The notes beneath the pieces were generated by a model, which worked only from the letters and a program-made list of their open reading frames with translations, was not told the DNA's origin and made no database searches. Of a DNA stretch of 64,000 nucleotides, positions 49,740-53,856 are shown in pieces (the first letter of the stretch is position 1; the number at the start of each line of letters is the position of its first letter). The DNA is from Mesorhizobium australicum WSM2073 (GTDB lineage: Bacteria; Pseudomonadota; Alphaproteobacteria; Rhizobiales; Rhizobiaceae): assembly GCF_000230995.2 (NCBI RefSeq), contig NC_019973.1:4726001-4790000 (forward strand), written 5' to 3'. Position numbers and translations under genes: made by a program.

Positions 49740-49979
49740 TCAGTTACCCCAGATGCCCTGGCCAGGCTCGGGCCAGTCGGTGGCTGGCTTCATCTTGGTG
49801 TCGGCGGTCTTGTGTTTGATCATATCCGTGTCGTTGACGGCGCCCGTGGCGGCGTGATCCACGCCGGCGACCGGGGCGACCGGCTGGTTGGCATTGTCGG
49901 AGCCATAGTGGTCGCTGCCGGCGAATGCACCCCCGGCTGCGACAAGGATAGCGGCGGTAGCGAGAGCAAGTCTGTTCAT
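49740..49979 (-). CDS. DUF680 secreted miniprotein A
   Basis: 79 residues: signal peptide MNRLALATAAILVAAGGAFA then GSDHYGSDNANQP, the DUF680 core, a variable His/Asp/Lys middle and the tail EPGQGIWGN. GGAGATTGAA precedes the ATG. Most divergent of four array members; its upstream region (49994-50045) keeps a degenerate version of the shared leader box. DUF680 proteins are known, as I recall, almost only from Mesorhizobium and have no function. Probably periplasmic or secreted. Confidence 0.85.
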   Translation of the reverse strand: MNRLALATAAILVAAGGAFAGSDHYGSDNANQPVAPVAGVDHAATGAVNDTDMIKHKTADTKMKPATDWPEPGQGIWGN

Positions 49980-49993
49980 TTCAATCTCCTGTT

Positions 49994-50045
49994 CATCCGT
50001 TGGGCGGCGTCTTGGGAGGACGGTTCCGCTGAGGAGAAGACCAGA
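49994..50045 (-). promoter_or_regulatory. DUF680 leader box, copy A (degenerate)
   Basis: Read on the plus strand it keeps CCGT, GGCGT, CTTGGGAGGA and GACCAG in the order and rough spacing of boxes B and C, 15-66 bp upstream of the miniprotein A start. Confidence 0.45.
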
Positions 50046-50120
50046 AGCAGCCTGGTTTTATTCCTGGACGTGAGATGTTTCTGCCGACTGGTAAGATCGG
50101 CGGCCTTCGGTCTGAACCTC

Positions 50121-50157
50121 AAAACAAGAGCGGCGGGCCAGGCCCACCGCTCTTTGT
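50121..50157 (-). terminator. terminator downstream of DUF680 miniprotein B
   Basis: On the minus strand AGAGCGGTGGGCC-T-GGCCCGCCGCTCT with one G-T pair, followed by TGTTTT. Nearly identical to 50802-50838. Confidence 0.85.
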
Positions 50158-50184
50158 CGTCAAGCCAGGCGAGGCCGGCGTGGA

Positions 50185-50418
50185 TCAGTTGCCCCAGTTG
50201 CCCTGGCCGGGATCAGGCTGATTGGAATCGGGCGTCAGCTTGAAACCGCGGTGTTCGACCGGCTTGCGGATCGAAGCCGTATAGCTGTGGTCGATTTTAC
50301 CCGCGGGCGCGGTGACCGCCGGCTGATTGACATTGTCAGAGCCATAATTGTCGCTGCCGGCGAAGGCGCCGCCCGTGGCAACGAGAATGGCGGCGGCGGT
50401 AAGTGCGATCCTGTTCAT
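50185..50418 (-). CDS. DUF680 secreted miniprotein B
   Basis: 77 residues: signal peptide MNRIALTAAAILVATGGAFA, then GSDNYGSDNVNQP and a Lys/His/Arg-containing middle, ending QPDPGQGNWGN. CGGAGTAAAGAA precedes ATG 50418. It has its own leader box (50441-50493) upstream and its own terminator downstream, so it is a single-gene unit. Paralogue of the proteins at 49740, 50861 and 51134. Confidence 0.85.
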   Translation of the reverse strand: MNRIALTAAAILVATGGAFAGSDNYGSDNVNQPAVTAPAGKIDHSYTASIRKPVEHRGFKLTPDSNQPDPGQGNWGN

Positions 50419-50440
50419 TTCTTTACTCCGATAGGTCTGG

Positions 50441-50493
50441 TCTGTCCGTCAAGTGGCGTGCCTTTGGGAGGAATTTCGCGTCGCTCGGACCAG
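50441..50493 (-). promoter_or_regulatory. DUF680 leader box, copy B
   Basis: About 52 bp almost identical to 51361-51411, ending 22 bp upstream of the miniprotein B start. On the minus strand it begins TGGTCCGAGCGACGCGAAAT, contains TCCTCCCAAAG and closes with GACGGACAG; the end CCGAC/GTCCG sequences can pair. Either promoter or structured leader RNA. Confidence 0.55.
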
Positions 50494-50699
50494 CTGAAAG
50501 TGGGTTTTTCGTTCGTCGGCTTCCAATCACGAAGATGTTCCTTCACGGCCCGATTTCGGACATCGAGGCTGGGGCACGGATTCGGCAGAAGTGTTTTTTA
50601 TCAACGTTATCAGTCTCTTGTTGCGCAACTCACGGAGTATCACGCTTTGTTTCGCCGAGGGGGCGTTCGCCGGGCGTTCACGGAGCGTCAACATTAATT

Positions 50700-50713
50700 G
50701 AACCGATTGGTTC
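50700..50713. promoter_or_regulatory. GAACC palindrome 282 bp upstream of DUF680 miniprotein B
   Basis: GAACC-GATT-GGTTC, the same length and arms as the site at 51621-51634, at nearly the same distance from its downstream gene (282 and 287 bp). It lies in an otherwise gene-free stretch (50494-50801). Confidence 0.45.
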
Positions 50714-50801
50714 GATCCGTGATCGGCGCGCTGGCCGGCACTTGTTCGACGGCTATCCGGCACGACTGAACCCGACTGGCTCGCCTGATTCCATTTGTCA
50801 C

Positions 50802-50838
50802 AAAACAAGAGCGGCGGGCCAGGCCCACCGCTCTTTGT
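50802..50838 (-). terminator. terminator downstream of DUF680 miniprotein C
   Basis: Near-exact second copy of the stem at 50121-50157, 22 bases after the stop of the gene at 50861. Confidence 0.85.
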
Positions 50839-50860
50839 AGTCACGCGATGCTAGAAGGGA

Positions 50861-51088
50861 TTAGCGGCCCCAGATGCCCTGGCCCGACTGAGCCGGAACG
50901 TTGGCATTGGCATCGGCCTGCGCCTTGTCCGCCTTCAGGATCGAACCGGTGTGGAAGGTGTCGACGTTGGAGGTCGACTGGCTGGCAACCGGCTGGTTGG
51001 CGTTGTCGGAACCGTAGTTGTCGCTGCCGGCAAAAGCGGTGCCAGTGGCAACGAGGATGGCAGCGGCGGTGAGTGCGATCTTGGTCAT
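50861..51088 (-). CDS. DUF680 secreted miniprotein C
   Basis: 75 residues from ATG 51088 (AGGAGTACTTGAA upstream; frame open 7 codons further). Signal peptide MTKIALTAAAILVATGTAFA, mature GSDNYGSDNANQPVASQSTS, a Gln/Ala/Asn/Asp-rich middle and end QSGQGIWGR. Only 45 bp after miniprotein D and lacking its own leader box, so it is the second gene of a D-C operon. The terminator at 50802 follows. Confidence 0.87.
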   Translation of the reverse strand: MTKIALTAAAILVATGTAFAGSDNYGSDNANQPVASQSTSNVDTFHTGSILKADKAQADANANVPAQSGQGIWGR

Positions 51089-51133
51089 TTCAAGTACTCC
51101 TGAATTCAAAGTTGGATGGATTGGCAGTCGCGA

Positions 51134-51334
51134 TTAGCGGCCGAAGAGGTTGCGGTCAGCGCCCTGCGGAGCCTGGACCGACGCGGCCGTCGACTTCGAG
51201 GTCGAAGCAGTGACCGAATGGTCGACAGTGGCGGCAGGCTGGTTGGCGTTGGCCGAGCCATAATTGTCGCTGCCGGCAAAAGCAGTGCCCGTGGCAACGA
51301 GGATGGCGGCGGCGGTAAGAGCGATCTTGGTCAT
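51134..51334 (-). CDS. DUF680 secreted miniprotein D
   Basis: 66 residues from ATG 51334 (TTCTGGAGTAAATAAA upstream). Signal peptide identical to that of C (MTKIALTAAAILVATGTAFA), mature part GSDNYGSANANQPAATVDHS and a Ser/Thr/Ala-rich middle, ending GADRNLFGR. Shortest member. Leader box C lies directly upstream, and the first gene beyond it is the divergent response regulator at 51814. Confidence 0.87.
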   Translation of the reverse strand: MTKIALTAAAILVATGTAFAGSDNYGSANANQPAATVDHSVTASTSKSTAASVQAPQGADRNLFGR

Positions 51335-51360
51335 TTTATTTACTCCAGAATTTCTTTGTT

Positions 51361-51411
51361 CTGTCCGTCTAGTGGCGTGCCCCTTGGGAGGATTTCGCGT
51401 CGCTCGGACCA
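51361..51411 (-). promoter_or_regulatory. DUF680 leader box, copy C
   Basis: Nearly identical to box B (50441-50493), ending 27 bp upstream of the miniprotein D start. The near identity of boxes B and C contrasts with the diverged sequence further upstream, so selection rather than mere recent duplication may preserve it. Confidence 0.55.
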
Positions 51412-51620
51412 CCTCCAAATGGGGAAGGCCTTTTGGAATTACCAGTCGCGTCGGTTTTGCAGTATTTCATCATATTATGGACAATGCATATTGCATTGCA
51501 GCATTTTCAGCCTGAATTCTCAAACATTTTCAGTAGATTAGCGTTTCTCCCGCAGACGCAAACACCAACCGACTCACGCCTATTGTTCACTGTTTACGAT
51601 ACAATCCGTCAACCAGAACC

Positions 51621-51634
51621 GAACCGTTCGGTTC
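51621..51634. promoter_or_regulatory. GAACCG palindrome between DUF680 array and response regulator
   Basis: GAACCG-TT-CGGTTC, extended on the left by another GAACCGAA from 51616. Lies 287 bp before miniprotein D and 180 bp before the response regulator, in a gene-free and locally AT-rich stretch (51412-51813). A candidate operator for either side. Confidence 0.5.
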
Positions 51635-51813: not shown

Positions 51814-52491
51814 ATGCGATTGCTGCTTGTGGAGGACAATCGCGAACTGGCGGACTGGCTAGGCAAGACCTTGCGCCAGGCGAATTATGTCGTCGACATC
51901 GTCCATGACGGCGAGGATGTCGAGCACGCGCTTGCCGCCGGCGACCACGCGCTTGTCATTCTCGACCTTGCGTTGCCCCGCATGGGCGGACTGGAAGTGC
52001 TGCGCATGCTGCGAGCCCGCGGCAACCGGGTGCCGGTGATCGTACTGACTGCCAATGCCAGCCTCGATGGCCGGGTCAAAGGCCTCAACGAAGGCGCCGA
52101 CGACTATCTGGCGAAGCCCTTCCAGGTAGAGGAACTCGAAGCGCGCATCCGCGTGCAACTGCGCCGCGCCAATGACCGGACGGCACCGGTCGTTGCCTGC
52201 GGCGACCTCATCTTCGACACCAACACCAGGCTGTTTTCGCTCGGCGGTGAAACACTGGCCCTGACACCGCGCGAACATGCAGTGCTTGAACAATTGATGA
52301 TCAAGGCGGGACGTACGGTAAGCAAGGCCGCCCTGTCGGCGGCGGTCTACGATTTCGAGACCGACGCCGATCCAAGCGCCATCGAGATCTATGTGCACCG
52401 TGTGCGCAAGAAGCTCGAGGGGTCGCGGGTCCAGATCACCACTTTGCGTGGCCTCGGCTATCTCTTGCGCCATGAGGACCTGGCGCCATGA
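51814..52491 (+). CDS. OmpR-family response regulator (TctD/QseB-like)
   Basis: 225 residues from ATG 51814 (the frame opens 127 codons earlier, but that part is non-coding in character). Receiver domain 1-120: LLLVEDNRELA with the acidic pair, phosphoacceptor Asp in LVILDLALPRMGG (about 51), Thr in VLTANA and Lys in DYLAKPFQVEEL. Winged-helix output domain 130-220 with the SGLTPREHAVLEQL-like LALTPREHAVLEQLM and DPSAIEIYVHRVRKKLEG. Partner of the histidine kinase 12 bp downstream. Divergent from the DUF680 array. Confidence 0.94.
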   Translation: MRLLLVEDNRELADWLGKTLRQANYVVDIVHDGEDVEHALAAGDHALVILDLALPRMGGLEVLRMLRARGNRVPVIVLTANASLDGRVKGLNEGADDYLAKPFQVEELEARIRVQLRRANDRTAPVVACGDLIFDTNTRLFSLGGETLALTPREHAVLEQLMIKAGRTVSKAALSAAVYDFETDADPSAIEIYVHRVRKKLEGSRVQITTLRGLGYLLRHEDLAP

Positions 52492-52503
52492 TGATTTGGC
52501 GCT

Positions 52504-53856
52504 ATGAAGACTAACAGCCTGCGCCTGCAATTGCTGGCCTGGGTCGTGCTCCCCCTGGCCGGGCTTGCGACCATCAATCTGTGGACCAGCCAGCGCAACG
52601 CTCTGGCGACCGCCGATCTGGTCACCGACCGCATGCTGGTCGGCTCGGCCCGCGCCATCGCCGAGCAGGTCGCCATGGCCGATGGCGTACTCGATGCCAC
52701 CATCCCGCCGGCGGCGATCGAGATGTTCGATACCGGCGATCGCGACAGCGTCTACTATCGCGTCGAGACCGCCGGAGGACGGTTGCTGACCGGTTACCCC
52801 GATTTGCCGCAAGCGCCGCGGCATGCGAGCGTCGAGGCGAGCTATCGCGACCATATGTTGCGGCTCTTGACGCTCAGCCACGCGGTGATCGGCGCCGGCG
52901 GCGATTCCCCCATAACGGTCACCGTGGGCATAACGCTCTCCGGGCATGATGCGATGGTGAAGCGGCTGTGGTTCAGCGCCTTCGTCCAGCAACTGGCGCT
53001 GGTGGCGATCGCCGGCGTGTTCGTGCTGCTTGGCCTGCGCCGCGGCCTGGCGCCATTGATGAGCCTGCGCGACGCGGTGCGTTCGCCAAGCCGAAGCGAC
53101 CTCGATCCGGTTGACGCGCCGGGCGCGCAGAGCGAAATCCGGCCTCTGATAGAGGCGCTCAACGCCTACATGGAACGGGTGCGCGCGCAGATGGGAGCGC
53201 AGCGCCGTTTCATCGCCAATGCCGCACATCAATTGCGCACGCCGCTGGCGCTGCTATCGACGCAGGCAAGCTATGCGCTACGCGAAACCGCCATCGATGC
53301 GCGCCAGGAAGCGCTGGTGGCGCTGCAGGCCAGCTCCGGCAAGCTGGCGCGGCTGGCCGAACAATTGCTCACCCTGTCGCGTGCCGAGCCTGGCAGCCGG
53401 CGGCCACGCGCCGATCGCATCGACCTGACAGAAGCCGCCCGCCATGTACTGGAAACGCAGGCGCCCGCGGCGATCGCCCGCAAGATCGATCTCGGGCTGG
53501 AGGAAACAGGGCCGGTTGCAGTCATTGGCGACGGCACCATGCTGCGCGAGATGATCGTCAATCTTGTCGACAACGCGCTGCGTTACTCGACGGCAGGCGC
53601 CAGCGTGACGGTGAAGCTGGCCGCCATCGATAGCGAAGCCGTGTTGACGGTAGCCGATGACGGACCCGGCATCCCGGCCGAAGAGCGGGATCACGTGTTC
53701 GAGCGCTTTTATCGCATCGCCGGTTCGACCGAGGAAGGCAGCGGCCTGGGCCTCGCCATCGTGCGCGAGGTTGTCGAGAATGCCGGCGGCCGCGTCACCC
53801 TCGGGGATGGCGCGGCCGGCGGTCTGGTGGTCGAGGTCAGGTTGCCCCTGGCCTGA
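52504..53856 (+). CDS. sensor histidine kinase (TctE-like)
   Basis: 450 residues. First membrane helix LLAWVVLPLAGLATINLW (about 10-27), a periplasmic sensor region to about 155, second helix LALVAIAGVFVLLGL, HAMP-like linker, HisKA with phospho-His in NAAHQLRTPLALL (about 241), and HATPase: NLVDNALRYS, ADDGPGIP, GSGLGLAIVREVV. The N-terminal domain resembles the TctE sensor for tricarboxylates, but the ligand is unknown. Co-transcribed with the response regulator. Confidence 0.94.
   Translation: MKTNSLRLQLLAWVVLPLAGLATINLWTSQRNALATADLVTDRMLVGSARAIAEQVAMADGVLDATIPPAAIEMFDTGDRDSVYYRVETAGGRLLTGYPDLPQAPRHASVEASYRDHMLRLLTLSHAVIGAGGDSPITVTVGITLSGHDAMVKRLWFSAFVQQLALVAIAGVFVLLGLRRGLAPLMSLRDAVRSPSRSDLDPVDAPGAQSEIRPLIEALNAYMERVRAQMGAQRRFIANAAHQLRTPLALLSTQASYALRETAIDARQEALVALQASSGKLARLAEQLLTLSRAEPGSRRPRADRIDLTEAARHVLETQAPAAIARKIDLGLEETGPVAVIGDGTMLREMIVNLVDNALRYSTAGASVTVKLAAIDSEAVLTVADDGPGIPAEERDHVFERFYRIAGSTEEGSGLGLAIVREVVENAGGRVTLGDGAAGGLVVEVRLPLA

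What the first reader, a model, noticed from the sequence alone, without database searches (positions are those of the whole stretch)
49740..51634. Array of four DUF680 secreted miniproteins with shared leader boxes, terminators and palindromes
Seen: four paralogous 66-79 residue proteins with near-identical signal peptides, a GSDxYGSxNxNQP core and a G-x-[WF]-G-[NR] end. They form three transcription units (A, B, D-C). Boxes B and C (50441-50493, 51361-51411) are almost identical over 52 bp, and A keeps a degenerate copy. The B and C units end in near-identical terminators. GAACC-N4-GGTTC palindromes lie 282 and 287 bp upstream of B and D. A two-component system is divergent from the array. 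Known, as recalled: DUF680 is nearly Mesorhizobium-specific and has no function. Inferred: a co-regulated envelope or secreted peptide system, possibly controlled by the adjacent regulator or by a leader RNA.
Basis: partly seen in the sequence, partly recalled or inferred. Interest (0 to 1): 0.75.

Follow-up and report, generated by a model that had tools for sequence, protein, structure and literature searches.

The report
Secreted miniproteins under an efflux regulator
A tandem set of tiny secreted proteins in the nitrogen-fixing genus Mesorhizobium appears to be switched by the same repressor that guards an efflux pump, through a long conserved control region that relatives reuse in front of other secreted miniproteins.

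Summary
In detail: four PF05079 (DUF680) genes with repeated boxes, palindromes and terminators. The genome holds ten DUF680 matches; a tandem set elsewhere has the same palindrome and box. The box is one part of a ~300-bp control region: palindrome, IHF-like site, -35/-10-like pair with a constant 15-bp spacer, then a hairpin often showing an anti-Shine-Dalgarno loop (CCUCCC). It leads 129 of 206 unit-leading DUF680 genes in the loci held. In 61 genus genomes, 117 of 121 model hits precede DUF680-like genes. Palindrome-to-box distance is ~226 bp. In this genome exact TCGAACC-N4-GGTTC occurs at four places: three DUF680 leaders and the tetR-emrA intergenic region; a second species repeats the latter. 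So an EmrR-like TetR, rather than the adjacent two-component system, is the likely regulator. Gene A uses another promoter (GAAT-N18-GTCT, ECF26 type) but keeps the anti-SD hairpin. Related control regions, without this palindrome, precede different secreted miniproteins in Phyllobacterium, the Ochrobactrum/Brucella group, Phreatobacter (names inferred) and unnamed genera. All this is comparative prediction; no binding, transcription or translation was measured. Open: the sigma factor, the constant distance, a strand bias of the hairpin, and what the peptides do.

The parts
49740..49979 (-). gene A, DUF680 miniprotein (79 aa)
   Evidence: PF05079 52.4 bits, cut-off 24
50185..50418 (-). gene B, DUF680 miniprotein (77 aa)
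   Evidence: PF05079 61.3 bits
50861..51088 (-). gene D, DUF680 miniprotein (75 aa), second in unit C-D
   Evidence: PF05079 46.6 bits
51134..51334 (-). gene C, DUF680 miniprotein (66 aa), first in unit C-D
   Evidence: PF05079 43.4 bits; pN/pS 0.14
50700..50713 (-). palindrome GAACC-N4-GGTTC upstream of B, predicted EmrR-type TetR operator
51621..51634 (-). palindrome GAACC-N4-GGTTC upstream of C, predicted EmrR-type TetR operator
50665..50692 (-). conserved GTTGACG...GAAC block after the operator (B), role unknown
51585..51613 (-). conserved GTTGACG...GAAC block after the operator (C), role unknown
50608..50620 (-). IHF-like site YAANNNNYTGATW (B)
   Evidence: exact in 73 of 126 leaders, nearly all at -130..-133 from the box; shuffles 0.8%; coordinates
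51528..51540 (-). IHF-like site with one mismatch (C)
50498..50525 (-). predicted promoter TGGAAG-N15-CCCACTT (B)
   Evidence: spacer of 15 in 119 of 126 leaders; coordinates
51417..51444 (-). predicted promoter TGGTAA-N15-CCCATTT (C)
50444..50490 (-). box of B: GTCCG...CGGAC arms around TTCCTCCCAAAG
51363..51409 (-). box of C: GTCCG...CGGAC arms around TCCTCCCAAGG
50038..50064 (-). ECF26-type promoter of A, GGAATAAA...GGTCT (GAAT-N18-GTCT)
   Evidence: consensus in PMC3616915 and PMC6180224
50004..50029 (-). leader hairpin of A with CUCCCAA loop
   Evidence: 40 of 41 such leaders carry CTCCC
50121..50155 (-). terminator-like hairpin of B
   Evidence: identical to that of C-D over 35 nt
50802..50836 (-). 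terminator-like hairpin of C-D
51814..52491 (+). response regulator, neighbour, judged not part of the system

Best explanation
The array is part of a genus-wide regulon of secreted, cysteine-free, disordered-looking miniproteins. Leading genes of the main class (B and C here) carry one composite control region. A TetR-family repressor of the EmrR type, whose own gene is divergent from an emrAB efflux operon, binds the palindrome ~226 bp upstream of the leader box; efflux-type ligands (in Sinorhizobium, flavonoids) would release it. An IHF-like site in between could bend the DNA so that the distal operator reaches the promoter. An alternative-sigma-like promoter (TGGAAA-N15-CCCAyNT) starts a short mRNA whose 5' end folds into a hairpin, in many copies with an anti-Shine-Dalgarno loop, that tunes translation or decay. 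Gene A and its orthologues use an ECF26-type promoter but keep the anti-SD hairpin, so two stress inputs feed one peptide family. SHOWN by comparison: co-occurrence, constant spacings, sharing of the palindrome with tetR-emrA, two promoter-motif classes, the loop. INFERRED: TetR binding and its ligand, IHF looping, that the motifs are promoters and which sigma factor reads B and C, the translational role, and an envelope-protective role of the peptides.
For: Exact TCGAACC-N4-GGTTC occurs at four regions of the 6.2-Mb genome: three DUF680 leaders and the tetR-emrA intergenic region, which has two sites 64 bp apart. The same pair is at tetR-emrA of G016 (TetR 88%, EmrA 85% identical). TetR, EmrA and EmrB assignments. 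Of 120 model hits with a box, 87 have an exact palindrome and 14 one with up to two changes, 223-232 bp from the box. 117 of 121 model hits in 61 genomes precede DUF680-like genes (114 by a motif test, three read by eye). Promoter spacer of 15 in 119 of 126, IHF-like site in 73 of 126 vs 0.8% of shuffles. Gene-A class: GAAT-N17..19-GTC in 48 (43 in the strict form) of the 77 unit-leading genes without a recognised box vs 347 of 20,000 random 160-mers; CTCCC in 40 of 41 such leaders vs 5.6% shuffled. S. meliloti RpoE1 drives a 'hypothetical signal peptide protein' (SMc01418) from GGAATAAA...GTGTCTT (PMC6180224). A review says that luteolin interferes with EmrR binding in S. meliloti and that loss of EmrR harms nodulation though loss of emrAB does not (PMC6780985 passages).
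Against: No binding or expression data. A TetR repressor ~180 bp upstream of a promoter is unusual; it may instead control a second promoter at the operator. 19 of the 120 hits have no palindrome at 215-235 bp, including 9 leaders of G005, G053 and G054. With one mismatch the palindrome pattern gives 35 rows vs 23 for its reversed control, so only exact sites are informative. Phyllobacterium and relatives have a different dyad there. The B/C promoter does not match the rhizobial RpoH consensus nor the ECF consensus motifs that I read. CTCCC is missing from the Ochrobactrum/Brucella-type leaders (0 of 8) and from 62 of 133 boxes, though the arms remain. The box arms pair better on the antisense strand. 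G038 has three DUF680 matches and no leader hit; G041 a leader hit and no DUF680 match. Leaders within a genus are related, so the counts are not independent.
Confidence: 0.58

Rival explanations
1. The neighbouring two-component system (51814-53856) controls the array.
For: RR, HK and SixA all flank 39 of 79 named DUF680 loci, so the neighbourhood is old.
Against: 32 of 79 named loci show none of the three genes, among them loci with the same leader. The palindrome points to another regulator.
Confidence: 0.07
2. The whole ~290 nt from palindrome to start codon is one structured leader RNA (riboswitch-like), transcribed from a promoter at the palindrome that TetR represses.
For: Near-constant length (225.8 +/- 1.7), several conserved blocks, TAAAAT-like sequence beside the operator in part of the leaders.
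Against: RNAalifold covariation term -0.1, no pair with both sides changed, on the 3' 140 columns; no Rfam match of the leader; motifs at fixed spacing with variable sequence between look like DNA sites.
Confidence: 0.18
3. The box encodes a hairpin in an antisense small RNA transcribed opposite to the leader.
For: Nine-bp arms form standard pairs in 1183 of 1197 cells on the antisense strand vs 787 on the sense strand in 133 boxes, and in 95 vs 77 of 97 cells in ten of fourteen outgroup boxes (L189, L215, L216 and L220 left out because their arms need bulges or were unequal). Two variable columns there run through A-U/G.U/G-C on the antisense strand.
Against: I recognised no antisense promoter or terminator by eye; gene-A hairpins pair well on the sense strand; L189 pairs fully on the sense strand and L195 has a sense G.U; most columns are invariant and changes are inherited by clades.
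Confidence: 0.13
4. The repeats are only recent duplications without regulatory meaning.
For: Identical terminator cores in the window and two identical tandem paralogues in L011.
Against: The leader model matches in 57 of 61 genomes and related regions stand in other genera in front of dissimilar peptides.
Confidence: 0.02

Closest known systems
S. meliloti EmrR-EmrAB (TetR-repressed flavonoid-inducible efflux)
   Same: TetR gene divergent from emrA-emrB, palindromes in the shared intergenic region.
   Different: Here the same palindrome also stands in front of secreted miniprotein arrays; three literature searches showed no report of this. Orthology to S. meliloti EmrR was not tested.
ECF26 (RpoE1/RpoE4) regulon of S. 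meliloti
   Same: GGAATAAA...GTCT promoter before a small signal-peptide protein (SMc01418).
   Different: There one hypothetical protein in front of the sigma gene; here a multi-copy DUF680 subclass with an anti-SD leader hairpin.
Anti-SD-loop RNAs: SmelA075, SmelA099, CcsR (cuckoo family)
   Same: Anti-SD loop on a hairpin with more variable stem.
   Different: Loop CCUCCCAA, one hairpin, in an mRNA leader before a secreted peptide. A DUF1127 neighbour was not looked for.
DUF680 (PF05079)
   Same: All four genes pass the Pfam cut-off.
   Different: The Pfam entry gives no function or regulation.

Membership tests
DUF680 (PF05079) | score above gathering cut-off | tested here: met
   43.4-61.3 bits vs 24
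EmrR-type TetR regulon | regulator gene divergent from emrAB | tested here: met
   in G016 only tetR and emrA were checked
EmrR-type TetR regulon | array shares the palindrome of the tetR-emrA region | tested here: met
   four exact regions in the genome
EmrR-type TetR regulon | regulator binds the DUF680 palindromes and is released by ligand | not testable with these tools
   needs EMSA and reporter assays
EmrR-type TetR regulon | orthology of this TetR to S. meliloti EmrR | not tested
   sequence of S. meliloti EmrR not fetched
ECF26 promoter (gene A) | GGAATA -35, GT(CT) -10, GAAT-N18-GTCT | tested here: met
   window 50038-50064; 43 of 77 box-less leading genes have the strict form, 48 a loose form
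ECF26 promoter (gene A) | an ECF26 sigma gene in this genome | not tested
RpoH promoter (B and C) | cTTGaa-N16-CgATaT (PMC4167512 passages) | tested here: not met
   TTGGAA / CTGGTA and CCCAyNT instead, compared by eye
IHF site | WATCARNNNNTTR (recalled consensus) | tested here: inconclusive
   exact in 73 of 126 leaders; consensus from memory, binding untested
Cuckoo-type anti-SD RNA | three or four hairpins with CCUCCUCCC loops | tested here: not met
   one hairpin, CCUCCCAA; description from PMC3927594 passages
Known Rfam leader | match at gathering score | tested here: not met
   no match in the array at gathering score; only chance-level ones below it

The most novel reading that the evidence does not exclude
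One portable regulatory head (distal dyad, IHF-like bend, alternative-sigma-like promoter, wobble-tuned hairpin) has been kept across Hyphomicrobiales while the secreted miniprotein behind it was replaced or diverged beyond recognition. Its hairpin is a real RNA switch: either an antisense-encoded small RNA, or an acid-sensing sense hairpin whose conserved A.C mismatches pair when protonated.
Probability: 0.15. Interest if true: 0.85.

Novelty: new variant of a known kind. Interest (0 to 1): 0.62.

Why it matters
It gives a family without known function a concrete regulatory address. It offers a testable answer to an open question in rhizobia: what else EmrR-type repressors control, since a review reports that loss of EmrR harms nodulation although loss of emrAB does not (PMC6780985, passages). 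It also shows a control region that is better recognisable between genera than the proteins it drives, which could serve to find further secreted miniproteins.

Tried and rejected
Structured-leader hypothesis: RNAalifold on 33 leader cores gave 15 pairs, none with both sides changed; a run on 122 longer leaders gave a better score on the antisense strand, not followed further. Rfam at permissive threshold: only chance matches in the array; the cobalamin riboswitch beside cluster 2 is unrelated. Own-genome scan with the promoter pattern and one mismatch: 10 matches vs 5 in the reversed control; one of the 10 is a DUF680 leader, B and C themselves are not matched, and the other exact match has no signal-peptide miniprotein among the ORFs printed, so this pattern is not specific. 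groES upstream regions gave no RpoH-like match to compare with. Plasmid searches for two outgroup peptides: no match. A first fuzzy box scan failed through a wrong gap length and was repeated. tetR-emrA in other genomes, looked for by position: found in 1 of 8 genomes, each only partly covered; absence elsewhere means nothing. Class-wide R2 search: 3 of 289 genomes, one being the window's own; the other two (L256, L257) have no signal-peptide miniprotein downstream. Weak R2 hits L229-L231, L234 and L241-L243 likewise have none and were treated as chance; a first look had read the wrong side of several hits, and the repeat moved L225, L226 and L228 from 'none' to 'before a secreted protein'. 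R1 hits L197 and L201 were treated as chance. g96 leaders (5 of 5) and one Phreatobacter leader (1 of 8) did not fit my promoter pattern. Hydrophilin idea (criteria recalled): eight example mature peptides have Gly 3.6-12.3% and GRAVY -0.66 to -1.16, only B below -1, so not supported as a class.
Full report
WHAT IS THERE. The window holds four DUF680 genes on the - strand (A, B, D, C). The genome (6.2 Mb, one contig) has ten DUF680 matches: these four, a tandem set of four at 397.8-398.8 kb, and single genes at 1.43 and 3.16 Mb. The tandem set (L011) has the same palindrome, box and a similar terminator.

DISTRIBUTION. DUF680 is in 57 of 61 genomes sampled from the genus, up to 11 matches each, and in 8 of 297 of the family sample, 4 of 109 genera, five of the eight being of the window's genus. 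Many copies are tandem.

THE CONTROL REGION. Aligned leaders show conserved blocks from the palindrome down to the ribosome-binding site (34 sequences). In 126 distinct leaders TGG[ACT][AC] starts 35 bp, and a CCCA-like motif 14 bp, upstream of the box in 124 and 119 cases; the spacer TGGAAA-N15-CCCA is met in 119. Sequence between these motifs varies while its length does not, which is how a promoter spacer behaves. An IHF-like motif (consensus recalled) is exact in 73 of 126 leaders, nearly always at -130 to -133, vs 0.8% of shuffled leaders. The palindrome (up to two changes) starts 225.8 +/- 1.7 bp from the box in 125 of 126.

IS THE BOX TIED TO DUF680? A sequence-only model of the leader core (R1, 33 sequences) gave 121 matches at E <= 0.01 in 57 of the 61 genomes; some of these places also trained the model. 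I held or fetched all 121. 114 have a DUF680-like gene directly downstream by a motif test, not by HMM. Of the other seven, three are DUF680-like genes that the test missed (G031 with a GTG start and G050, read; a diverged one in G034:C71), one precedes a different secreted miniprotein (G041), two end at a contig edge, and one (E = 0.007) is chance. So 117 of 121. G038 has three DUF680 matches but no R1 match, and G041 the reverse. Of the 120 places with a box, 87 have an exact palindrome, 14 one with up to two changes, and 19 none at 215-235 bp.

THE PALINDROME. Exact TCGAACC-N4-GGTTC occurs in the genome only at cluster 2, at B, at C, and twice, 64 bp apart, at 469.3 kb. The last place is the intergenic region between a TetR-family gene (PF00440 and PF14246) and emrA-emrB (EmrA: TIGR00998 at 248 bits, below its cut-off; EmrB: TIGR00711 above cut-off). 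With one mismatch allowed the pattern gives 35 rows vs 23 for its reversed control, so only exact sites are informative. In 36 stretches (about 0.68 Mb by my sum of their lengths) of eight other genomes GAACC-N4-GGTTC occurs six times: at three DUF680 leaders, twice at a tetR-emrA region of G016 (TetR 88%, EmrA 85% identical), and once elsewhere. Part of the leaders have a second copy 70 bp from the box (24 sites with up to two changes). I therefore read the palindrome as the operator of an EmrR-type repressor. In S. meliloti EmrR represses emrAB, luteolin interferes with its binding, and emrR but not emrAB mutants nodulate poorly (PMC6780985, a review, passages only). I did not compare the two TetR sequences.

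TWO PROMOTER CLASSES. In 175 held loci, after removing duplicates, DUF680-like ORFs (recounted) fall into 129 with a box, 142 close followers in an operon, 48 with GAAT-N17..19-GTC (43 of them with the strict GGAATAA...GGTC form), and 29 others, which include a few false ORFs and boxes too diverged for the pattern. So the box leads 129 of 206 leading genes. Random 160-mers have the loose motif in 347 of 20,000 cases. Gene A has GAAT-N18-GTCT at 50038-50064, the consensus used for S. meliloti RpoE1 (PMC3616915, passages) and fitting the ECF26 group (PMC6180224, passages and section 6 part 1). SMc01418, a hypothetical signal-peptide protein, has a very similar promoter there.

THE LEADER HAIRPIN. 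In the gene-A class 40 of 41 leaders carry CTCCC; 37 of 38 by a stricter gene test, vs 5.6% of shuffles, and in 29 of 38 the motif lies in a hairpin loop of the predicted fold. Stems differ (CGUC/GACG, GGCC/GGCC) around an almost constant CCUCCCAA. Similar loops are in many boxes of the other class: TCCC in 100 of 133, CTCCC in 71 of 133. It resembles the anti-SD loops of SmelA075/SmelA099 (PMC3927594, passages) and recalls the CcsR RNAs (PMC10253847, passages), which are separate small RNAs.

BEYOND THE GENUS. R1 hits at E 1e-4 to 6e-3 led to homologous control regions in genera g17, g51 and g96; these were put into a wider model R2 (18 sequences), so that R2 finds those genomes partly by construction. 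R2 adds ten further genomes of the same three genera at E < 1e-7 (best hits 1e-15 to 2e-8) and weak matches elsewhere: 39 of 346 family genomes and 16 of 109 genera at E <= 0.01, most of them weak. In another family 8 genomes of one genus match at 8e-6 to 0.008. Downstream stand small secreted proteins that Pfam does not recognise as DUF680 (five examples scanned): ENPxVGxPxxLYANDxTP...RFGDA types in g17, g51 and g96, and PREFTxRR types in the distant genus. On re-checking strands, four weak hits at E 1e-4 to 8e-4 in genera g47 and g109 (L225-L228) also stand before signal-peptide proteins of still other sequence, while L229-L231, L234, L241-L243, L256 and L257 do not. Homologues of the first type are named Phyllobacterium, Paramesorhizobium, Ochrobactrum and Brucella, several called 'DUF680 domain-containing' by UniRef; of the PREFTxRR type, mostly Phreatobacter. 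The genus names rest on these listings and on contig lengths, so they are inferred. CTCCC is in 6 of 6 Phyllobacterium-type, 0 of 8 Ochrobactrum/Brucella-type and 7 of 7 matched Phreatobacter-type leaders (one of 8 unmatched; L237 has it only outside the first hairpin), and in 5 of 5 g96 matches read by eye. A sampled search of the class found nothing else convincing (3 of 289 genomes, one being the window's own).

THE NEIGHBOUR. The two-component system and SixA all flank 39 of 79 named loci; 32 show none of the three, 6 SixA only, 2 the two-component system only, some on short contigs. They mark one of the DUF680 sites, not the leader.

PEPTIDES. Eight example peptides: signal peptide, mature part 46-59 aa, no cysteine, 76-86% disorder-promoting residues, charge -4 to 0. 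C is under purifying selection (pN/pS 0.14; 15 pairs among six sequences of equal length, 16 of 21 orthologues left out for length). I have no direct evidence for their function; protection of the envelope when efflux and stress regulons are on is a guess from the regulation.

UNEXPLAINED. (1) In the box class the inner arms read A.C on the sense strand where the antisense strand has G.U: 1183 of 1197 standard pairs antisense, 787 sense (133 boxes); 95 vs 77 of 97 in ten of fourteen outgroup boxes with hand-set arms. Two columns swap together (A.C + C-G in 60, G-C + C.A in 71 of 133). The gene-A hairpins are not of this kind. (2) The constant 226 bp. (3) The conserved GTTGACG...GAAC block after the operator. 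(4) The sigma factor of the box promoter. (5) G005, G053 and G054 keep three leaders each without the palindrome at the usual place.

NOVELTY. DUF680 appears in six papers of the held library and PF05079 in one; by their titles they concern cyanophages and marine bacteria, biocatalysis and the Bet v 1 fold (listings only). Mesorhizobium + EmrR + TetR gives none. Within those searches the link is new. Each component is of a known kind, so I rate it a new variant.

Noticed in passing
window 50444-50490, 51363-51409 and 133 boxes in held loci: Inner hairpin arms pair almost perfectly with G.U wobbles on the antisense strand but with A.C mismatches on the sense strand; two columns swap in a coupled way.
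   Followed up: partly
L011:4831-5032 (+): A cobalamin riboswitch (108.5 bits) lies on the opposite strand upstream of the second DUF680 set.
   Followed up: no
L059-L063, L069 and others, 70 bp upstream of the box: A second copy of the palindrome stands where other leaders have a different inverted repeat, just upstream of the promoter (24 sites with up to two changes).
   Followed up: partly
L363, L364, L367-L371 (G005, G053, G054): Genomes with three DUF680 leaders each but no palindrome at the usual distance.
   Followed up: no
L225-L228 (genera g109 and g47): Weak leader matches in two more genera stand upstream of secreted proteins of other sequence; those of g47 have repeated SNDLVSYDR/TATAS-like segments.
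   Followed up: partly
L189-L198 upstream regions: In Phyllobacterium and relatives a different dyad (GAACACACTGTTC and variants with extra GAAC half-sites) stands where Mesorhizobium has the palindrome.
   Followed up: no
L277:14922: A palindrome TACTGAACCAAATGGTTCAGTA away from DUF680 and tetR-emrA.
   Followed up: no
L251 (own genome C1:1487013-1487043 +): A one-mismatch copy of the promoter pattern (TGGCAA-N15-CCCATGT) 62 nt upstream of a 121-aa protein with an apparent signal peptide.
   Followed up: no
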